NCBI RefSeq assembly: GCF_001592125.1
Contig: NZ_BCWI01000006.1
Location: 1 to 64,000, forward strand
Length of the DNA stretch: 64,000 bases
DNA from: Microbacterium hominis NBRC 15708
GTDB lineage: Bacteria > Actinomycetota > Actinomycetes > Actinomycetales > Microbacteriaceae
Direction: 5' to 3'
A model generated the notes under the pieces. That model was not told the DNA's origin. It made no database searches and saw nothing but the letters and a program-made list of their open reading frames with translations. A program made the position numbers and the translations under genes. Shown here piece after piece: positions 9,082 to 42,494 of the stretch. The first letter of the stretch is position 1, and each line of letters opens with the position of its first letter.

Positions 9082-9804
9082 GTGGATCTGCACATCGGAG
9101 GGCTTCGCGCCGTCGTCTCCGGCGGGGCCGGTGGGATCGGTGCGGCCGTGGTCCGCACCCTCGAGGCCGAGGGCGCGGTCGTCGCCGTGATCGATCGCGT
9201 CGCCGTGCCCGGTCGCCTGTCGGTCGTCGCCGACATCCGCGACGAGGCTGCGGTCGCGGCGGCCGTCGACACCGCCGCGGCGCGGCTCGGCGGCATCGAT
9301 CTGCTCGTGTGCGCCGCAGGGATCTCCGGCCCCGTCGGCACGCCGCTGGGGCGCACCTCCCTCGCCGACTGGGACGCGGTCATGGCGGTCAACGTCACGG
9401 GCACCTTCCTCACGTTGCGCAGCGCCCTGCCGTGGCTCGCAGCGTCCGCGCAGGCGGCGGTCGTGATCGTCGCGAGCGACTCGGCCTTCGTCGCCACGGG
9501 AGGCATGGTCCCCTACGGCGCCTCGAAAGCGGCCGTGCTGCAGCTGGCGCGCGCCGCCGCGGTGGAACTGCAGCCGGACGGCATCCGCGTCGCCGCCGTC
9601 TGCCCGTCGATCGTGGACACCCCGATGAGTCGGGGCGATCTCGACCTCGCGACCGGTTTCGCCGATGTCGCGTATCCCGTGCAGAGCGCCGACGAGCTCG
9701 CGGGGACGATCGTCTACCTCCTCTCGCCGGCGGCGCGGGCCATCGCCGGCACCGGCATCGTCTCCGACTTCGGGTTCAGCGCCCGATCGGCCTTCCCCGC
9801 CTGA
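9082..9804 (+). CDS. SDR-family oxidoreductase
   Basis: A 240-residue classical short-chain dehydrogenase. The cofactor motif SGGAGGIG lies at 13-20, Asp38 ends beta-2 (VIDR, suggesting NAD preference), CAAG at 77-80 replaces the usual NNAG, and the catalytic residues are Ser132 and Tyr145-x3-Lys149 (YGASK). The C-terminal part is slightly short of the common GG-x-V-DGG ending; it reads GTGIVSDFGFSA, so the substrate loop and tail differ from the tandem SDR that follows. Substrate unknown. The GTG at 9082 is preceded by GGGGGAGGG. It is followed 38 bases later by a second SDR, so the pair is probably one transcript. Confidence 0.85.
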   Translation: MDLHIGGLRAVVSGGAGGIGAAVVRTLEAEGAVVAVIDRVAVPGRLSVVADIRDEAAVAAAVDTAAARLGGIDLLVCAAGISGPVGTPLGRTSLADWDAVMAVNVTGTFLTLRSALPWLAASAQAAVVIVASDSAFVATGGMVPYGASKAAVLQLARAAAVELQPDGIRVAAVCPSIVDTPMSRGDLDLATGFADVAYPVQSADELAGTIVYLLSPAARAIAGTGIVSDFGFSARSAFPA

Positions 9805-34547: not shown

Positions 34548-36440
34548 ATGGCCATCGCCGACCTGTTCACCCGCCCCACCGCCGTTCTTCCCGCGGGCGG
34601 GAGCGCACCCGCTGCGCCCGCCCGGTTCGGACGGCGCCCCACGGCCGCCGGCGCGGGTCTCGAGGAGCTCTTCGCCTGGGTCGACGAGATCGCCGCTCTC
34701 ACGCAACCGGCCCGCATCCACTGGGTCGACGGCTCGCGCGCCGAGAACGAGGCGCTGCTGCGCGAGCAGGTGGAGGAGGGCAAGCTCATCAAGCTCAACC
34801 CCGAGTGGCGCCCCGGCTCGTACCTCGCCCGCTCGCACCCGAGCGACGTCGCCCGCACCGAGGCGCGCACCTTCATCGCGTCGGCGCGGGAGGAGGATGC
34901 CGGCCCCACGAACAACTGGGTCGCCCCGGAGGAGATCCGCGCGACGATCACGCCGCTGTTCGAGGGATCGATGCGCGGGCGCACGATGTACGTCGTCCCC
35001 TTCTCGATGGGAGCCGTCGGCGGGCCGCTCTCGCACATCGGCGTCCAGATCACCGACAGCGCCTACGCGGTCACCTCGATCGGGATCATGACCCGCGTCG
35101 GCACCGCCGTGCTGGAGCAGATCGCCGACGGCAAGCCGTGGGTGAAGACGGTCCACTCGGTCGGAGCCCCGCTGGCCCCGGGCCAGCAGGACGTGCCGTG
35201 GCCGTGCAACGACGAGAAGTACATCGTGCACTTCCCCGACACGCTCGAGGTGTGGTCGTTCGGCTCCGGCTACGGCGGGAACGCGATCCTGGCCAAGAAG
35301 TGCTTCGCCCTGCGCATCGCCTCCGTCATCGGACGCGACGAGGGCTGGCTCGCCGAGCACATGCTCCTCATCCGCGTCATCAGCCCGGAGGGGCGCAGCT
35401 TCCACCTCGCGGCGGCCTTCCCCTCGGCGTGCGGCAAGACGAACCTCGCGATGCTGCGTCCGACCATCCCGGGCTGGCGCGTGGAGACCCTGGGCGACGA
35501 CATCGCGTGGCTGCGCCCCGGCGAGGACGGCCGGCTCTGGGCGATCAACCCCGAGGCGGGCTTCTTCGGGGTCGCGCCCGGCACGGGACAGTCGACGAAC
35601 GTCGCGGCCGTGGAGACGCTCTGGGGCAACACGATCTTCACGAACGTCGCGCTGCGCCCCGACGGCGACGTGTGGTGGGAGGGCCTCACCGACGAGGTGC
35701 CGGACGAGCTCACCGACTGGGAGGGCAACCCCTGGACGCCCGCATCCGGGCGGCCCGCGGCGCACCCGAACTCGCGCTTCACGGTGAGCGCGGGTCAGTG
35801 CCCGCAGATCGCTCCCGACTGGGAGGCCCCCGAGGGCGTGCCGCTGGACGGCATCCTCTTCGGCGGACGCCGGGCCACCAACGTGCCGCTGGTGGTCGAG
35901 GCCACCGACTGGACGCACGGCGTCTTCCTCGGCTCCAACATCTCCTCCGAGCGCACCGCCGCCGCCGAGGGGACCGTCGGCGAGCTGCGCCGCGATCCCT
36001 TCGCGATGCTGCCGTTCTGCGGCTACAACATGGCGGACTACTTCGGCCACTGGCTCGCGGTCGGCCAGCAGCTGCGGTTCGACCGCGCGCCGCGCATCTT
36101 CCAGGTGAACTGGTTCCGCAAGGGCGACGACGGCCGCTTCCTCTGGCCCGGCTTCGGCGACAACGCGCGCGTCATCGACTGGATCATCCGCCGCATCGAG
36201 GGCCGGGTGTCCGCCGTGGACAGCCCCATCGGGCGGCTGCCGCTCACGGACGACCTCAACCTCGCCGGCATCGAGGTGCCGCAGCGCGATCTGGACGCCC
36301 TCTTCGAGATCGACCGCGACCTGTGGCTGCAGGAGACCGACCTCACCGAGGAGTTCTACCGCACCTTCGAGGGCCGCGTCCCGGCCGCGCTCTACGCCGA
36401 GCTCGCGGCCCTGCGCTACCGCCTCCGGCGGGAGGCGTGA
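34548..36440 (+). CDS. pckG: Phosphoenolpyruvate carboxykinase (GTP)
   Basis: A 630-residue protein, close to the normal GTP-type length. [12 protein letters not shown] (291-302) combines the P-loop with the hyper-reactive Cys295 seen only in GTP-dependent enzymes. Also present are the R-loop region [32 protein letters not shown], and the omega-loop lid near [11 protein letters not shown]. It converts oxaloacetate and GTP to PEP, GDP and CO2, the first step of gluconeogenesis. The ATG at 34548 follows AAGGAG. It is divergent from a ScfR/RamB-like regulator and ends 6 bases from the convergent Asp23-like gene, with no separate terminator visible. Confidence 0.97.
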
Positions 36441-36446
36441 GCGGGC

Positions 36447-36779
36447 TCAGCCGGGGGTGATCCGGCTGACGCGCACCGTGACCCGGGCATCGGGGTCGCC
36501 GATCGCGTCGCGAACGCGTGCGGCGACCTCGCGGGACACCTCGGCGACGCGCCCCCCGGTCACGCCGATGCTCACCGTCGCCTCGACGGCGTCGGCACGA
36601 CGCACGACGACGCTGTAGGCGCCGTCCGGCGCGACGGTCGCCCGCCACAGGCGTGCGGGCAGGGGCGCGGCGTAGTACAGCTCCGCGACGCCGGCGACGG
36701 CGCGCGCGGCGGCATCCACGGTCGCCGCCAGGTCGGAAGGGCGCAGGCCGTCCGCCGCGGGGATCGACAGGTCGCTCAT
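36447..36779 (-). CDS. Small Asp23-like protein of the sigma-factor operon
   Basis: A 110-residue soluble protein. I do not recognise a named family, but the pattern follows the Asp23/Gls24 fold: a helix (DLAATVDAAARAVAGVAELY), then strands (YSVVVRRA, VEATVSIGV), a helix (REVAARVRDAI) and a final strand (ARVTVRVSRI). It is the third gene of an operon with an ECF sigma factor and another Asp23-like protein, overlapping the latter by four bases (ATGA). Its job is probably in the same envelope-stress assembly or in controlling the sigma factor. Confidence 0.65.
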   Translation of the reverse strand: MSDLSIPAADGLRPSDLAATVDAAARAVAGVAELYYAAPLPARLWRATVAPDGAYSVVVRRADAVEATVSIGVTGGRVAEVSREVAARVRDAIGDPDARVTVRVSRITPG

Positions 36780-37348
36780 CGCTCGTCCTCCCGCACCCGC
36801 AGCGAGTCGACGACCACGTCGATCTCGCCCACCGTCCACTCGGCGTACTCCTCCAGCGCGTGCCGCACGCGCGTGCGCACCCGGTCGGCGACGCCCGGCA
36901 GCCCGTCGCCGCGCAGGACGACGGCGTGCAGCACGCTGATCGTCATCCTCACGTCGACCCGCGCGGCGGTGTCGACGTCCACGTCGACGCGCTCCACGAG
37001 CACGCCCTCCACGTCGTCTCCCGCGTCGCGGACGAGTCCGCGCACCGCGCCCTCGGTGACGACGATGCGAACGGGCTCGTCGTCGATCAGCGGCAGGTCG
37101 CGTCCGGCCCGCGACTCGCGAGCCACCTCGCCGAGGATCTGCTGGAACCATGACTCCGACACGTCGGTGCGGGCGTCGTGCTCGACCAGCTCGCGCGACA
37201 GCGCCCCGAGCCGATCCATCGAGTCGAGGACGGCGCGGCACTGCGGATCGCCCTCGATGGCGGCGATCGCCGGGGTGCGCCCACGGTCGTGGTACGCGGC
37301 GAGCTCCTCGAGGGTGTGGCCCGACTCTCCGATCTCCTCGCGTGTCAT
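36776..37348 (-). CDS. Asp23-like protein with an N-terminal helical, anti-sigma-like segment
   Basis: A 190-residue soluble protein. Residues ~10-65 are helical (HTLEELAAYHDRGRTP, CRAVLDSMDRLGALSRELVEHDA) and are placed like an anti-sigma domain, but have no HxxxCxxC zinc motif. Residues ~85-185 fit an Asp23-like fold (VRIVVTEGAVRGLVRDAGDDVEG, VDVRMTISVLHAVVLRGDG, ADRVRTRVRHAL, VGEIDVVVDSLRV). No membrane segment is seen. It directly follows the ECF sigma gene. The ATG at 37348 was chosen because GGAGGTGA, which contains the sigma gene's stop, lies five bases upstream. Anti-sigma function is inference from position. Confidence 0.65.
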   Translation of the reverse strand: MTREEIGESGHTLEELAAYHDRGRTPAIAAIEGDPQCRAVLDSMDRLGALSRELVEHDARTDVSESWFQQILGEVARESRAGRDLPLIDDEPVRIVVTEGAVRGLVRDAGDDVEGVLVERVDVDVDTAARVDVRMTISVLHAVVLRGDGLPGVADRVRTRVRHALEEYAEWTVGEIDVVVDSLRVREDER

Positions 37349-37353
37349 CTCGT

Positions 37354-37899
37354 TCACCTCCAGTCCTGCATGCGGTCGTAGATGGTCGCGCGTGCGCGCG
37401 CCAGGCGGCCGCGGACGGCCGTGGCCGAGACGCCGAGCTCGCGGGCGATCTCGTCGTAGCCGTACCCGCTGACCTCGCGCAACAGCCACACGGTGCGCTG
37501 CTCGACCGGCAGGTCGTCCAGCACGCGCCGCAGCGTGTCCAATTGAGAGGATGCCACGGCGGACTCGTCGGGCGTCGGCTGCAGCGCTTCGGGCTCGGCA
37601 TCCTCGATGGGCGTCGAGGGGCGCGCCGAGCGCAGCCGGTCGGTGGCCTTGCGGGCCACGATCGTCGACAGCCAGGAGCGCACGCGTGCGGGCTCGCGCA
37701 GTTCGGGCAGTCGCCGCCAGGCGACGATGAGCGCCTCCTGCACGCAGTCGTCGGCGTCGGCGCGCGAGCCGAGCAGGCGCGTCGCGAAGCCGATCAGGTA
37801 CCCGCTGTGGCGACGCACGAGCACGGCGAAGGCGCGCTCGTCCCCGTCGGCGGCGCGCGCCGCGAGCACGCCGTCCTCGACGAGCGTCAGCGTCTCCAC
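37354..37899 (-). CDS. ECF-type RNA polymerase sigma factor
   Basis: A 181-residue sigma-70 family protein with only regions 2 and 4. Region 2 includes LGSRADADDCVQEALIVAWRRL and RSWLSTIVARKATDRLRS. Region 4 includes LPVEQRTVWLLREVSGYGYDEIARELGVSATAVRGRLARAR. It directs polymerase to a stress regulon, probably including the divergent Asp23 operon 260 bases away and its own operon. The GTG at 37899 follows AAGGAG. Upstream in-frame codons lie in the promoter region. Confidence 0.92.
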   Translation of the reverse strand: METLTLVEDGVLAARAADGDERAFAVLVRRHSGYLIGFATRLLGSRADADDCVQEALIVAWRRLPELREPARVRSWLSTIVARKATDRLRSARPSTPIEDAEPEALQPTPDESAVASSQLDTLRRVLDDLPVEQRTVWLLREVSGYGYDEIARELGVSATAVRGRLARARATIYDRMQDWR

Positions 37900-37990
37900 A
37901 CGCGCTCCTTCCCCTGTGCTCCCTCGTGCCGCAGCGGCACGGTCCCCCCGGTCTACGACGACCGTGCCACGAACGCGGCGGCGCGCCAAG

Positions 37991-38020
37991 GGGTTGCGCG
38001 CGGCCTCCCGCAGCGTCTAT
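37991..38020 (+). promoter_or_regulatory. Candidate ECF-type promoter for the Asp23 operon
   Basis: GGGTTG (37991-37996) and CGTCTAT (38014-38020) are 17 bases apart and resemble the -35 / CGTC -10 layout used by ECF sigma factors. They point at the Asp23 gene with a ~135-base leader. The -35 is not a classical GGAAC, so this is only a candidate. Confidence 0.3.
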
Positions 38021-38160
38021 GCGGACGGTGTCGGGGTCACGTCCGGCACCGGCGTCACCGCACTCAGCGAACTGCCAGGGAATCGACCGTGACGATCGGG
38101 CCGCGGCGCCCGTCACACTCGTGAACGCCCTCACCCGAGGGTGCGGAAAGGACACAGATC

Positions 38161-38580
38161 ATGGCCACCACGACCACCCCCACCCCGAACGCCGCTCCCG
38201 TCGCCGGCGGCGGCAAGACCGTCATCGTCGACCCCGTGATCGCGAAGATCGCCGGCATCGCGGCATCCTCCGTCCCCGGCGTGCACGCCCTCGGCGGCGG
38301 CGCCGCCCGCGTGATCGGCAGCATCCGCGAGGCCGTCGGCGCGAAGGACCTCGGCCAGGGCGTGAACGTCGAGGTCGGCGAGAAGCAGGTCGCCGCCGAC
38401 ATCACGATCGTCGCCGAGTACCCCGAGCAGCTGCAGCGCGTGGCCTCCGACGTCCGCGCGGCCGTCGCCGACGCCATCACGGAGCTGGCCGGCATGGAGG
38501 TCACCGAGGTCAACGTGACCGTCGTGGACGTCCACATCCCGGGTGACGACGACGCGCCCGCCCCGGAGCGCGTCCAGTGA
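38161..38580 (+). CDS. Asp23/Gls24 family envelope stress protein
   Basis: A 139-residue canonical Asp23 protein. TVIVDPVIAKIAGIAASSVPGVHAL is the family's opening, followed by VNVEVGEKQVAADITIVAEYPEQLQRVASDVRAAVADAITELAGMEVTEVNVTVVDV. In Firmicutes this protein forms a membrane-proximal layer held by AmaP. The first ~18 residues are a flexible Thr/Pro/Ala stretch. It is the first gene of a tightly packed operon; GGAAAGGA precedes the ATG at 38161, and the stop overlaps the next start (GTGA). Confidence 0.92.
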   Translation: MATTTTPTPNAAPVAGGGKTVIVDPVIAKIAGIAASSVPGVHALGGGAARVIGSIREAVGAKDLGQGVNVEVGEKQVAADITIVAEYPEQLQRVASDVRAAVADAITELAGMEVTEVNVTVVDVHIPGDDDAPAPERVQ

Positions 38581-38774
38581 CCGGCGCGAGCCCCACGGTG
38601 TGGGGCGCCGTCGCGGGCGCCGTCCTGGCCTTCGCCGTCCTGGCGTTCGGGTTCTGGGGCATGGTGCTCGTGGCGGTGCTCGCCGCCCTCGGCGGTCTCA
38701 TCGGCGCCGCGGTGTCGGGTCGCATCGACCTGCGCGCGGCGATCGACGCGGCCCGCGGACGGCGGGTGGGCTGA
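38577..38774 (+). CDS. Small DUF2273-like membrane protein
   Basis: A 65-residue protein that is essentially one hydrophobic hairpin (VWGAVAGAVLAFAVLAFGFWGMVLVAVLAALGGLIGAAVSG) with a short basic tail, RIDLRAAIDAARGRR. This is the look of DUF2273 proteins that accompany Asp23 genes and may help anchor the layer to the membrane. It starts with a GTG that overlaps the Asp23 stop as GTGA. Confidence 0.8.
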   Translation: MTGASPTVWGAVAGAVLAFAVLAFGFWGMVLVAVLAALGGLIGAAVSGRIDLRAAIDAARGRRVG

Positions 38775-38776
38775 TC

Positions 38777-39088
38777 ATGGATGCCGCACGGATCCCCGGT
38801 CGGGTCACCATCGCCACACGGGCCTACGAGCGCGTCGCGGCGGCGGTGCTCGCCGATGAGCTGGGGGTCCCCGCCCGCGCGGCCCGCGCGAGCGTGCGCG
38901 ACGCGGGCGGGGCGCTCGCCCTGGATCTCACCAGCGGCATCCGCGGCGACGCCGAGCCCATCGCCACCGGCGCCGCATCGGCGCGCACCCGCACCGGCGA
39001 GCGCGTGACCGAGCTCACCGGTGCCCGCGTCGGCGAGATCCGACTGCGCATCACACATCTCGTGACCGAAGAAAGGAGCGGCTCGTGA
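38777..39088 (+). CDS. Small Asp23-like protein
   Basis: A 103-residue soluble protein. I do not know a named family, but GRVTIATRAYERVAAAVLADELGVPARAARASVRDAGGALALDLTSGI, followed by RVGEIRLRITHLV, follows the helix-strand-strand plan of Asp23 domains. The ATG at 38777 lies two bases after the DUF2273-like stop. The gene overlaps its downstream neighbour by four bases. It probably co-assembles with the Asp23 protein. Confidence 0.65.
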   Translation: MDAARIPGRVTIATRAYERVAAAVLADELGVPARAARASVRDAGGALALDLTSGIRGDAEPIATGAASARTRTGERVTELTGARVGEIRLRITHLVTEERSGS

Positions 39089-39687
39089 ACACGACACCGA
39101 CGACGGCGGACGCCGTCCCGGCGGAACGTCCCGACCGCGTCGAGCGGGCCGCTGCGAAGCGTCTGCAGGGGCGCTCGCGCGCCGTCTGGGTGGCCGTCGC
39201 GCTGCTGGTCGCCGCCGCGGTCGCGGTCCTGCTCGCCGTGGAGGCGGTGCTCGCCGCGCTCGGGCAGCCGCCCGCGCTCGTCGCCCCGGACGCCATCGGC
39301 GCCGCGCTGACCGGCGGCGGGACGACGGGGACGATCGTCGCCGCGACCGCCGCGGTGTTCGGCCTCCTGTGCCTCTGGGGCGCACTCGCCCCCGGGCGCA
39401 CGCACCGCCGGGCCCTCGCCGCCGGGCGGGTGCCCCTGGTCGTCGACGACGCCGTCATGGCGGGCGCCCTGTCCCGCACGGCCGGCAGCGCCGCGGCGGT
39501 GGCCGCCTCCCACGTGACCACCCGGCTCGGCGGTCGCCGCGCCCGGGTCTCGCTCACCCCGTCCACCGGCTTCCCGGTCGACCGTGAGCGGGTGTCGCGC
39601 GCGGCCGACGACCTGCTCACCGAACTCGGCGCCGCGCCGCGTCTGACGGCGCGGATCGACGTCGCCGCGGAAGGACGACTCTCATGA
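39085..39687 (+). CDS. DUF6286-like membrane protein with Asp23-like tail
   Basis: A 200-residue protein. The cytoplasmic N-terminus is basic (RVERAAAKRLQGRSR), with two membrane helices at ~34-60 and ~78-102. The ~90-residue soluble domain (VPLVVDDAVMAGALSRTAGSAAAV, ARVSLTPSTGFPVDRERVSRAADDLLTEL, LTARIDVAAEG) resembles an Asp23 module. It is probably a second membrane anchor of the system. The GTG start overlaps the previous stop as GTGA, and AAAGGAGC provides the ribosome site. Confidence 0.7.
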   Translation: MNTTPTTADAVPAERPDRVERAAAKRLQGRSRAVWVAVALLVAAAVAVLLAVEAVLAALGQPPALVAPDAIGAALTGGGTTGTIVAATAAVFGLLCLWGALAPGRTHRRALAAGRVPLVVDDAVMAGALSRTAGSAAAVAASHVTTRLGGRRARVSLTPSTGFPVDRERVSRAADDLLTELGAAPRLTARIDVAAEGRLS

Positions 39688-40244
39688 CTCTCGGGGCCCG
39701 CGTCCTCAATCGCGCGATCCTGCTCCTGCTCGCACTCGTCGCCGGCGCGGTCGCCGTCACCGCCGCCTGGCCCGTCCTGGCGGGCGGGCAGCCGATGCCG
39801 CTGCTGGCACCGATCGCCGACGCCGTCCGCAGCACGGGGCTCGCTCCCCGGGCACAGGCCGGGATCGCCGCCGGCATCCTGGCCCTGGGCGTCGTGATCG
39901 CTCTCGCGATCGTCCTCACCCGTGGCGAGCGCCACGTGCGTGCGGCCGTCGACGACGGGAAGATCGCCATCGACGACGGCGTCGTCGCCGACCTGCTGCG
40001 GCGCTCGCTGGCCGACGTGCCCGATGTGCTGACGGTGTCGGCGGTCACCCTCCGTCGTCGTCGCGGCCGTCTCGTGCGCGTCCGCGTGCAGGTGCGCCCC
40101 CGCGCCGACCTGCCACTCGTCCAGCGTCGCGTGTCCGCCGCCGTGGCCGACACCGATCGGCGCCTGGGGCTCGCCCTCCCGCTGGTCGTCCAGCTCACGG
40201 GCGGGCTGCGGTCCGCCTTCGCCCACGAGCGCCGCGTCGCCTGA
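39684..40244 (+). CDS. AmaP-like membrane anchor protein
   Basis: A 186-residue protein with membrane helices at ~9-29 and ~58-80. A soluble part follows: GKIAIDDGVVADLLRRSLADVPDVL, RLVRVRVQVRPRADLPLVQRRVSAAVADTDRRLGLALPLVVQL. Two helices followed by an Asp23-like module is the AmaP layout. In Staphylococcus AmaP tethers Asp23 to the membrane, so the same role is inferred. The ATG overlaps the previous stop (ATGA). Confidence 0.7.
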   Translation: MTLGARVLNRAILLLLALVAGAVAVTAAWPVLAGGQPMPLLAPIADAVRSTGLAPRAQAGIAAGILALGVVIALAIVLTRGERHVRAAVDDGKIAIDDGVVADLLRRSLADVPDVLTVSAVTLRRRRGRLVRVRVQVRPRADLPLVQRRVSAAVADTDRRLGLALPLVVQLTGGLRSAFAHERRVA

Positions 40245-40319
40245 CGCCGTCGAACGTCCCCGCCTGCCGGGGATCCCTGAGAAGAACACCCAGAACCACC
40301 ACAGAGAAAGGAGACCCCC

Positions 40320-40517
40320 ATGGGCCTCGCAGACGACATCAAGAACACCGCCGAGAACCTGACCGGCAAGGCCAAGGAGGCCATCGGCAACCTCACCGAC
40401 AACGACAAGCTCGTCGCCGAGGGCAAGGCCGACCAGGTCAAGGCCCACGCGAAGGACGCGGCCGCCGACGTCAAGGACGCGGCGAAGGACGCGAAGGACG
40501 CGCTCGGCGGCAAGTGA
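40320..40517 (+). CDS. CsbD-family stress protein
   Basis: A 65-residue, highly charged helical protein. GLADDIKNTAENLTGKAKEAIGNLTDNDKLVAEGKADQ is the CsbD signature, followed by Lys/Asp/Ala repeats. CsbD is a general-stress (SigB-dependent) protein in Bacillus of unknown function. It has its own AAAGGAG site and lies 75 bases after the AmaP-like gene, so it is probably the last gene of the stress operon. A strong hairpin follows. Confidence 0.92.
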   Translation: MGLADDIKNTAENLTGKAKEAIGNLTDNDKLVAEGKADQVKAHAKDAAADVKDAAKDAKDALGGK

Positions 40518-40577: not shown

Positions 40578-42494
40578 TCAGACCAGCAGCTGGTGCTTCG
40601 CCAGGTCGCGATACAGCGGCACGGTCTCCACGAGCTCGGAGTGCGTGCCCTGGCCCACGACGCGGCCGTGGTCCATCACCACGATCAGGTCGCTGTCGAC
40701 GACGGTCGACAGACGGTGGGCGATGACCACGAGCGTGCGGCCGGTCGCGACGGCGTCGATCGCCTCGCGCATGCGCTGCTCGTTCAGCCCGTCCAGCGAC
40801 GAGGTCGACTCGTCCAGCAGCAGCACCGGGGGAGCGGCCAGCAGCGCCCGCGCGATCGCGAGGCGCTGGCGCTCGCCGCCGGAGAGCATGACGCCCGCCT
40901 CGCCGACGGGGGCCTCGAGTCCGAGGGGGGAGCGCTCCAGCACGTCGCCGAGGTTGACGGCGCGCAGCACCCGCTCGCAGTCCTCGTCGGAGGCCGTCGG
41001 CGACGCCAGCCGGAGGTTGTCGGCGATGGTGCCGGCGAGGGTCGGCGCATCCTGCTCGACGTAGCCGAGCTGGGCGCGCAGTCGCGTGCGGTCGATGCCG
41101 CGGAGGTCGACGCCGTCGAGCAGGATCGCCCCGCCGGTGGGGTCGTAGAAGCGTTCGATGAGGGCCAGGGTGGTCGACTTGCCGGCTCCGGACGGCCCGA
41201 CGAGGGCGACGCGGGCGCCGCGCGGGACGCGGAAGGACACGCCCCGCAGCACTTCGCCCGGGGTGTCCGACACCTCGACGGTGGCGTCGGCGTGCGCCTC
41301 GGCGAGCAGGGCCGCGGCTTCCGCCTCCGAGCGGCGGCGCGCGCTGACCACGGCATCCGGGTAGGAGAACCGGACGTCGCGGAACTCGATCGTCGCCGGC
41401 GGCGTCTGGTCCTCGTGCGCGGCGGCGGTCGAGATCGGCGAGGTGCCGACGGCGACGGATGCTGCGACCTCCGCGTCGCACGCGGTCTCGGTGCGCAGAT
41501 CCAGCACCTCCTGGATGCGCCCCAGCGCGCCGAGGGCCTGTCCGACGGAGGTGATCGCCCCGAAGAACGAGCCCAGGGGCTGGACGAGGAAGAAGAGGAA
41601 CATCACGAACGTGACCAGCCCGGCGATCGTGATGGCGCCCGAGGCGACGCGGAACCCGCCGACGCCCAGGACCACCAGCAGCGACAGCTGCAGCGCGACA
41701 CCGGCGACCGGCACGACGAACGCCGACGCCTTCGCGACCTGCACGCCGGCCTCGTACGCGCCCCGCGCGGTGTGCTCGATGCTCTCGCGCTCGCGCTCCG
41801 AGGCCCCCGAAGCACGGATCGTGCGAATCGATCCGACCGCGCGCTCGACGCCCGAGGCCAGCTCGCCGACCTTCTCCTGCTGCACGGCTGTCGCGCGACG
41901 GATGCGCCCGCTGAGGGCCACCACGACCGCGACCGACGCCCCCACGACGACGAGGATTAGCGCCAGCAGCACCGGATCGATGATGAGCATCGCGACGATC
42001 GCGCCGACGAAGATGAGCGCATTGCCGATCGAGTCGGCGAGGCCCTGGGTGAGCACGGCGTACAGCAGCGTCGTGTCGGTGCCGACGCGCGAGACGAGGT
42101 CTCCCGTGCGACGCGCGTCGTACTCCTGCACCGGCAGGTGCAGCAGCTGGGCGATGAGGCGGCGGCGGCTCGAGTAGACGACCGCGGTGCCCGTGCGCTG
42201 CAGCAGGAAGTGCTGGATGCCGCTGATCACCGACGACGCGACGACGAGGCCCACCAGCACCCAGACGAGCACCCCGAGCGGATCCTCCTTCTGCACCCGG
42301 TCGATGACCTGGCCGACGACGAGCGGCTGGGCGAGCGTCGCGACCGCGGCGAGCACGCTGAGCACGGCCACGACGACGAGCACACCCTTCTGCTCGAAGA
42401 CGAAGGGGAGGAGCTGTCGCAGGCTCGCGCGGGGCCCATCGTCGGCGGGACGGCGGCGGCTGCGGGACGGGCGGGTGGTGCTGGCAGAAGACAT
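40578..42494 (-). CDS. ABC exporter half-transporter (fused membrane and ATPase domains)
   Basis: A 638-residue type IV ABC exporter subunit with six membrane helices (~35-310) and one NBD. FSYPD (376-380) holds the A-loop Tyr; Walker A is GPSGAGKST (433-441), signature LSGGERQRLAIARALL, Walker B VLLLDESTSSLD, H-loop VIAHRLSTV. About 31 residues (382-412, Ala/Glu-rich helix) are inserted between the A-loop and Walker A, which is unusual. It probably works as a homodimer exporting a lipid, drug or peptide. The Ser/Arg-rich N-terminus is cytoplasmic. Confidence 0.9.
   Translation of the reverse strand: MSSASTTRPSRSRRRPADDGPRASLRQLLPFVFEQKGVLVVVAVLSVLAAVATLAQPLVVGQVIDRVQKEDPLGVLVWVLVGLVVASSVISGIQHFLLQRTGTAVVYSSRRRLIAQLLHLPVQEYDARRTGDLVSRVGTDTTLLYAVLTQGLADSIGNALIFVGAIVAMLIIDPVLLALILVVVGASVAVVVALSGRIRRATAVQQEKVGELASGVERAVGSIRTIRASGASERERESIEHTARGAYEAGVQVAKASAFVVPVAGVALQLSLLVVLGVGGFRVASGAITIAGLVTFVMFLFFLVQPLGSFFGAITSVGQALGALGRIQEVLDLRTETACDAEVAASVAVGTSPISTAAAHEDQTPPATIEFRDVRFSYPDAVVSARRRSEAEAAALLAEAHADATVEVSDTPGEVLRGVSFRVPRGARVALVGPSGAGKSTTLALIERFYDPTGGAILLDGVDLRGIDRTRLRAQLGYVEQDAPTLAGTIADNLRLASPTASDEDCERVLRAVNLGDVLERSPLGLEAPVGEAGVMLSGGERQRLAIARALLAAPPVLLLDESTSSLDGLNEQRMREAIDAVATGRTLVVIAHRLSTVVDSDLIVVMDHGRVVGQGTHSELVETVPLYRDLAKHQLLV

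What the first reader, a model, noticed from the sequence alone, without database searches (positions are those of the whole stretch)
36447..40517. ECF sigma factor divergent from an array of Asp23-like proteins
One divergon holds an ECF sigma factor, canonical Asp23, a DUF2273-like hairpin protein and CsbD. By my reading it also holds five further proteins carrying Asp23-like modules: 36447, 36776 C-terminus, 38777, 39085 C-terminus and 39684 C-terminus. Two of those have membrane helices and could be AmaP-type anchors. In Firmicutes Asp23, AmaP and DUF2273 proteins form a membrane-proximal layer under SigB. Here the same parts seem expanded and put under a dedicated ECF sigma factor, which could be a distinct actinobacterial envelope-stress machine.
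Basis: partly seen in the sequence, partly recalled or inferred. Interest (0 to 1): 0.7.

Follow-up and report, generated by a model that had tools for sequence, protein, structure and literature searches.

The report
Sigma factor controlling Asp23 membrane-layer operon
An actinobacterium carries a conserved gene set in which a dedicated transcription factor, probably held in check by a protein built partly like a subunit of the cell's under-membrane protein layer, appears to switch on the genes for that layer.

Summary
The divergon 36447-40517 contains an ECF sigma factor, canonical Asp23, a DUF2273 protein, CsbD and five further proteins with Asp23-like modules (evidence graded from strong to modest), two of them membrane proteins (AmaP-like, DUF6286-like). 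In 80 related loci the sigma gene is followed by the same two Asp23-like genes every time; 54 of 81 loci (window included) hold the full Asp23-DUF2273-P3-DUF6286-AmaP set. First, the protein next to sigma (36776-37348) is the likely anti-sigma factor: its helical N-terminal half tracks sigma's evolution better than its own Asp23-like half does. Second, a promoter-like motif, GTGACG-N16-CGTC (small variants allowed), precedes Asp23 in 73 of 73 loci (shuffles: at most 3), is concentrated in genomes that hold the anti-sigma gene, and recurs before second Asp23 operons and CsbD genes. So a dedicated ECF sigma very probably drives the Asp23 layer. A review already reports Asp23-family anti-sigma factors as a prediction, untested, for groups ECF286 and ECF292; I read this as a new variant of that kind. 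What is sensed, and whether the anti-sigma docks on the layer, is inference.

The parts
36447..36779 (-). P2: small soluble protein, Asp23-like throughout; third gene of the sigma operon, overlapping the anti-sigma gene by 4 bases
   Evidence: ORF; hhalign 80 to the Asp23 family; present beside sigma in 81 of 81 loci
36776..37348 (-). ASF: probable anti-sigma factor, helical N-terminus (about 1-80) plus Asp23-like C-terminus (about 90-190)
   Evidence: ORF; AlphaFold2 mean pLDDT 85.9, lower (57-77) for residues 51-100; hhalign 96 of the C-terminus to Asp23; N-terminus co-varies with sigma
37354..37899 (-). ECF sigma factor; start GTG at 37897-37899 chosen from an upstream AAGGAG and the length of relatives (the open frame reaches 37989)
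   Evidence: Pfam regions 2 and 4 over cut-off; sequence read
38089..38114 (+). Predicted ECF promoter GTGACG-N16-CGTC, 46 bases before the Asp23 start codon
   Evidence: motif in 73 of 73 Asp23 upstream regions with small variants, shuffles mean 0.73 and maximum 3; position checked
38161..38580 (+). Canonical Asp23
   Evidence: Pfam 88.4 bits; the one Asp23 match at E<=0.001 in the whole genome
38577..38774 (+). DUF2273 small membrane protein
   Evidence: Pfam 29.3 bits, over cut-off; hydrophobic stretch
38777..39088 (+). P3: small soluble Asp23-like protein
   Evidence: hhalign 67-88 to Asp23; present in 55 of 81 loci
39085..39687 (+). DUF6286-like protein: two membrane helices plus a C-terminal domain of Asp23-type topology
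   Evidence: 36 of 50 relatives hit DUF6286 at E<=0.1, the window protein itself does not; AlphaFold2; two hydrophobic stretches
39684..40244 (+). AmaP-like anchor protein
   Evidence: NCBIfam AmaP E 9.8e-12, 45 bits, below the cut-off of 55; 27 of 29 relatives match at E<=0.01; two hydrophobic stretches
40320..40517 (+). CsbD stress protein
   Evidence: Pfam 66.5 bits; in 46 of 81 loci

Best explanation
A dedicated ECF sigma / soluble anti-sigma switch for an Asp23-type layer under the membrane. The leftward operon makes the sigma factor, an anti-sigma factor (ASF: sigma-binding helical N-terminus plus Asp23-like C-terminus) and a second Asp23-like protein (P2). Free sigma transcribes the rightward operon Asp23-DUF2273-P3-DUF6286-AmaP-CsbD from GTGACG-N16-CGTC, and in relatives also second Asp23 operons and CsbD genes. 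The AmaP-like, DUF6286-like and DUF2273 proteins anchor the layer to the membrane. Most likely the Asp23-like half of ASF (perhaps with P2) reads the state of the layer through the contacts that Asp23 subunits use, so that loss or disturbance of the layer frees sigma and restores it. Shown by computation: the parts, their conservation, the motif and its link to ASF-bearing genomes, and the co-variation of the ASF N-terminus with sigma. Inferred: binding of sigma by ASF, use of the motif by this sigma, anchoring. Speculative (about 0.3): docking of ASF on the layer as the signal, and its direction. The confidence below is for the switch without that last step.
For: Sigma and P2 lie beside ASF in 81 of 81 loci, Asp23 in 73 of 81; in 20 stretches from more distant genomes of the class, chosen for ASF or Asp23 hits, 17 have ASF beside ECF, 15 of these with Asp23. 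Motif before Asp23 in 73 of 73 loci (shuffles mean 0.73, maximum 3); with a weight matrix over all loci, 73 sites before Asp23 and 5 elsewhere. A strict form occurs in 38 of 54 ASF-bearing genomes and 10 of 96 others (Fisher p 5e-14). Of 29 strict sites in ASF-bearing genomes away from ASF, 9 precede a further Asp23 gene (7 with DUF2273 behind it) and 6 a CsbD gene, against 0 of 10 sites in genomes without ASF. Distances of the ASF N-terminus follow sigma at r 0.89, against 0.77 for the ASF C-terminus and 0.75 between the two ASF halves (taxon bootstrap of the difference 0.09 to 0.16). Published: soluble Asp23-family proteins next to ECF286/ECF292 are predicted anti-sigma factors (PMC8999054, passages); in S. 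aureus AmaP tethers Asp23 to the membrane and Asp23 forms filaments in vitro (PMC6954212, passages).
Against: No binding, expression or phenotype data. The N-terminus of ASF lacks the HxxxCxxC motif of zinc anti-sigma factors and resembles them only weakly (hhalign probability 22, controls below 1); its fold was not compared on its own. The sigma operon itself lacks the motif (4 of 81, shuffle mean 1.2), so there is no sign of the autoregulation common for ECF sigma factors, unless by read-through in the 41 co-directional loci. The exact motif is absent before Asp23 in 18 of 18 stretches outside the family, though some carry near forms. 16 of 54 ASF-bearing genomes lack the strict motif, the window's Asp23 promoter among those the stricter pattern misses. 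An Asp23/Gls24 gene of Streptomyces venezuelae went down, not up, after ethanol shock (PMC9769785, passages).
Confidence: 0.62

Rival explanations
1. ASF and P2 are only further structural subunits of the layer; the sigma factor has no protein anti-sigma and is set by its own transcription or an unlinked factor. It still drives the Asp23 operon.
For: Asp23-like domains are shared by the layer proteins; no known anti-sigma domain is recognised in ASF by Pfam; the review lists ECF groups that lack anti-sigma factors and are set by transcription (table passage).
Against: ASF stays beside sigma in loci where the layer operon is partial or absent from the stretch (27 of 81 loci), and its N-terminus follows sigma far more closely than Asp23 does (0.89 against 0.65 for sigma with Asp23).
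Confidence: 0.2
2. GTGACG-N16-CGTC is the operator or promoter of another regulator, and the neighbouring ECF sigma has other targets.
For: In the window the site reads nearly as a palindrome (GTGACG ... CGTCAC), as an operator might; -35 GTGACG differs from the GGAAC recalled for many ECF promoters.
Against: The consensus is not a palindrome across loci (CGTC is followed by tTA); the motif faces the gene; it goes with the presence of ASF (38 of 54 against 10 of 96).
Confidence: 0.1
3. The switch senses a small molecule or metal, not the layer: the Asp23-like half of ASF is a ligand-binding domain.
For: The modelled C-terminal half of ASF matches the cytoplasmic metal-binding domain of cation transporters (MamM CTD 6h9q, Z 12.2, rmsd 2.1, 79 residues aligned); a His and a Cys are frequent in the N-terminus (63 and 71 of about 80 rows).
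Against: A shared fold shows no function, and metal ligands were not tested in that domain; the predicted targets are the layer itself, which favours a homeostatic signal.
Confidence: 0.08

Closest known systems
ECF sigma groups ECF286 and ECF292 (classification of Casas-Pastor et al. 2021, seen only through the review PMC8999054, passages)
   Same: ECF sigma encoded next to a soluble Asp23-family protein predicted to be its anti-sigma factor; actinobacterial examples.
   Different: Group membership of this sigma was not testable. The passages mention no promoter motif, layer operon, second Asp23-like gene (P2) or regulon; the original classification paper is not held, so these may be described there.
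Asp23-AmaP system of Staphylococcus aureus (PMC6954212, passages)
   Same: Asp23, AmaP anchor and (recalled) DUF2273 protein in one operon; Asp23 under the membrane; CsbD and Asp23 as stress outputs (SigB-dependent, recalled).
   Different: Here an adjacent ECF sigma with an Asp23-like partner replaces SigB as the likely controller, and P3, P2 and a DUF6286-like protein are added.
Zinc-binding anti-sigma factors (ZAS, RsrA type)
   Same: Small soluble protein encoded right after an ECF sigma with a helical N-terminus; weak profile similarity.
   Different: No HxxxCxxC; an Asp23-like C-terminal domain instead.

Membership tests
ECF sigma factor | Sigma-70 regions 2 and 4 over curated cut-off | tested here: met
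   62.7 against 24 bits and 52.9 against 25.7 bits
ECF286 / ECF292 | Assignment by the group's sigma profile | not testable with these tools
   Group profiles not at hand; classification paper not held
ECF286 / ECF292 | Encoded next to a soluble Asp23-family protein | tested here: met
   ASF beside sigma, no hydrophobic stretch; Asp23-like by profile comparison
ECF286 / ECF292 | Neighbour acts as anti-sigma factor | not testable with these tools
   Predicted in print; only co-variation here
Asp23 (PF03780) | 38161-38580 over the gathering cut-off | tested here: met
   88.4 against 28 bits
Asp23 (PF03780) | ASF (36776-37348) over the gathering cut-off | tested here: not met
   20.3 against 28 bits; I call it Asp23-like on profile and model evidence, not a Pfam member
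Asp23 (PF03780) | P2 (36447-36779) and P3 (38777-39088) over the gathering cut-off | tested here: not met
   P2 14 against 28 bits, P3 no match; Asp23-like by hhalign
AmaP (NF033218) | 39684-40244 over the curated cut-off | tested here: not met
   45 against 55 bits; hence 'AmaP-like'
AmaP (NF033218) | N-terminal membrane helices | tested here: met
   hydrophobic stretches 11-29 and 60-78 by a simple hydropathy scan
DUF6286 (PF19803) | 39085-39687 over the gathering cut-off | tested here: not met
   No match for the window protein at E<=0.1; 36 of 50 relatives match at E<=0.1, best 1.1e-11
DUF2273 and CsbD | 38577-38774 and 40320-40517 over their cut-offs | tested here: met
   29.3 against 25.4 and 66.5 against 40 bits
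Zinc anti-sigma (ZAS) | HxxxCxxC zinc motif in the N-terminal domain | tested here: not met
   Only single His (position 11) and Cys (position 37) columns are common
Zinc anti-sigma (ZAS) | Anti-sigma domain fold of the ASF N-terminus | tested here: inconclusive
   Four helices; hhalign to ZAS probability 22 against 0.1-0.2 for five control families; the fold searches barely covered this part

The most novel reading that the evidence does not exclude
The anti-sigma factor is a decoy subunit of the Asp23 layer: its Asp23-like domain docks into the same contacts as Asp23, so sigma is held or released according to how complete or strained the under-membrane layer is. The cell would gauge a cytoplasmic scaffold by a competing subunit and rebuild it through a small regulon, with no transmembrane sensor.
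Probability: 0.3. Interest if true: 0.78.

Novelty: new variant of a known kind. Interest (0 to 1): 0.56.

Why it matters
What Asp23 layers do is called unclear even for S. aureus (PMC6954212, passages). Here the layer genes, their predicted promoter and their predicted regulator sit together in a unit conserved across many actinobacteria, which makes the question testable: delete ASF or change the promoter boxes and read Asp23. It also turns a published but untested idea, Asp23-family anti-sigma factors, into specific predictions: which half binds sigma, which promoter is used, which genes respond.

Tried and rejected
Autoregulation of the sigma operon by the same motif: not supported (own-strand motif in 4 of 81 upstream regions, shuffle mean 1.2, maximum 4). 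The window's own-strand hit is the same site read backwards. Read-through in the 41 co-directional loci remains possible.

A wide regulon in the window's own genome: not found. The strict pattern gives three sites: the Asp23 promoter, one in window 9370-9399 that lies inside a reading frame that looks coding, and one about 500 bases before a secreted-protein-like ORF. The looser pattern gives 89 hits against 12 for the reversed control; I did not read these one by one.

The exact motif outside the family: absent in 18 of 18 Asp23 upstream regions. By eye, L189 and L191 have GTGAGG-N16-CGTC (one letter changed), and L172 and L177 a GTGACG followed by CGTGTCC; this was not tested statistically. 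L190, which has the layer operon with no sigma or ASF in the stretch, has no motif that I could see.

No family match to a solved Asp23 relative by sequence (ASF profile; Asp23). The DUF6286-like model: no Foldseek E below 0.001, top Z 7.5.

ASF profile over the class: 107 of 296 genomes match, but many matches cover only the C-terminal 60 residues and are Asp23 cross-hits, so I do not use this as a count of ASF.

Rows left out: the loci are the best 80 of 138. Analyses that need Asp23 use the 73 loci (window included) where it lies in the stretch held. Alignments A3, A4, A5, A6, A7 hold 70 of 81, 50 of 55, 29 of 57, 28 of 55 and 29 of 81 rows. Layer-protein correlations use the 54 loci with all families. 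The variants allowed in the 73 of 73 count were chosen after seeing the ten loci that the first pattern missed.
Full report
WHAT IS THERE. The window lies in a 3.5 Mb genome; by its nearest relatives it is a Microbacterium. Leftward from 37899 run an ECF sigma gene, ASF (36776-37348) and P2 (36447-36779). Five bases separate sigma and ASF, and ASF and P2 overlap by four. Rightward from 38161 run Asp23, DUF2273, P3, a DUF6286-like gene, an AmaP-like gene and CsbD, closely packed or overlapping up to the AmaP-like gene. The many other long ORFs are what a GC-rich sequence gives; I did not pursue them.

ASP23-LIKE MODULES. Families were built from 80 loci of named records and compared as profiles. 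The ASF C-terminus, P3 and P2 link to Asp23 with probabilities 96, 67-88 and 80; sigma, DUF2273 and CsbD stay at 8 or below in every pair. The DUF6286-like and AmaP-like families link to each other (92-93), and the DUF6286-like C-terminus weakly to P3 (26-41). Their direct link to Asp23 is weak (0-5). The AmaP model hits canonical Asp23 (E 2.6e-4). AlphaFold2 gives beta-alpha-beta-beta-alpha-beta for the ASF C-terminus and for the DUF6286-like C-terminus. The nearest solved fold to the ASF C-terminus is the cytoplasmic domain of the cation transporter MamM (6h9q, Z 12.2, rmsd 2.1, 79 aligned); the DUF6286-like model has none above background (top Z 7.5).

CONSERVATION. A relative of ASF is found in 54 of 150 genomes of the family. 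In the 80 loci plus the window, sigma and P2 lie beside ASF in 81 of 81 (ASF was the query, so only sigma and P2 inform), Asp23 is present in 73, AmaP-like in 57, DUF2273 in 56, P3 in 55, DUF6286-like in 55 and CsbD in 46 (some stretches end at contig ends). Two layouts exist: 32 divergent, as in the window, and 41 with the Asp23 gene running towards sigma; 54 hold the complete layer set. Named records include Microbacterium, Agreia, Rathayibacter, Leucobacter, Cryobacterium, Promicromonospora, Tessaracoccus and Arachnia. One (L190) has the layer operon without sigma or ASF in the stretch, and one (L191) has sigma and Asp23 without an ASF match.

PROMOTER AND REGULON. Counting word pairs upstream of Asp23 found GTGA-N18-CGTC in 63 of 73 loci; the best pair in shuffled sequence reached 10. 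The ten others carry small variants; with these allowed it is 73 of 73, against a mean of 0.73 and a maximum of 3 in 100 shuffles. In the window the site is 38089-38114, 46 bases before the Asp23 start. A strict form occurs in 48 of 150 family genomes: 38 of 54 with ASF and 10 of 96 without; the reversed control pattern gives ten hits in all. Of its 73 sites, 34 lie within 6 kb of an ASF gene, roughly 0.2% of the sequence. The other 39 were read. Of 29 in ASF-bearing genomes, 9 precede an Asp23 gene and 6 a CsbD gene (confirmed with the session's profiles; 7 of the 9 have DUF2273 and 6 have a DUF6286-like gene behind), 2 a DUF7882-type gene (one checked by Pfam, the other by eye), 2 a membrane protein, and 10 are small, unclear or inside coding-like sequence, the two sites of the window's own genome included. 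Of 10 in genomes without ASF, none precedes Asp23 or CsbD. CsbD and Asp23 are SigB targets in Firmicutes (recalled), so the output resembles a SigB branch put under an ECF sigma.

ANTI-SIGMA CASE. The ASF N-terminus is modelled as helices at 13-21, 29-32, 35-60 and 65-80 (confidence falls to 57-77 between 51 and 100). Its distance matrix follows sigma at 0.89, against 0.77 for the ASF C-terminus and 0.75 between the two halves (73 loci); the difference holds under resampling of taxa (0.09 to 0.16) and without the window's close clade (0.88 against 0.72). P3, DUF6286-like and AmaP-like follow each other at 0.77 to 0.88 (54 loci). Likeness to zinc anti-sigma factors is only suggestive. Correlated distances are not proof of contact.

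HOW IT MAY WORK. Sigma is held by the ASF N-terminus; the Asp23-like half of ASF, perhaps with P2, reads the layer; freed sigma makes the layer proteins. Binding, promoter use and the signal are inferences.

KNOWN OR NEW. Nine searches of the held papers (Asp23 with ECF sigma factor; with AmaP; with Streptomyces and sigma factor; ECF286; ECF292; Asp23 with Actinobacteria and anti-sigma; DUF6286; DUF2273 with Asp23; [quoted passage not shown] I judged most other hits from the listings alone. A Streptomyces venezuelae study reports an Asp23/Gls24 gene lower at three times after ethanol shock (PMC9769785, passages), which does not favour simple induction by membrane stress there; whether that gene belongs to this layout I did not test. 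In these searches I saw no description of the operon, motif or regulon, but the library lacks most subscription journals and the classification paper is not held.

Noticed in passing
   Followed up: partly
   Followed up: partly
window 36776-37348, C-terminal half of the protein: The modelled Asp23-like domain matches the cytoplasmic domain of cation transporters (MamM, MamB, YiiP) at Z 10-12. Whether Asp23 and these domains are related is not known to me.
   Followed up: no
   Followed up: no
L255 around 2710 (own genome, contig C16:27709-27738): A strict motif about 500 bases before a secreted-protein-like ORF; unclear whether real.
   Followed up: partly
window 34548-36440 and 40578-42494: A gene that I read as phosphoenolpyruvate carboxykinase (by eye) flanks the cluster in 7 of 81 loci, window included, and relatives of the ABC transporter occur in 16 of 81: the flanks are local, the cluster is not.
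   Followed up: partly
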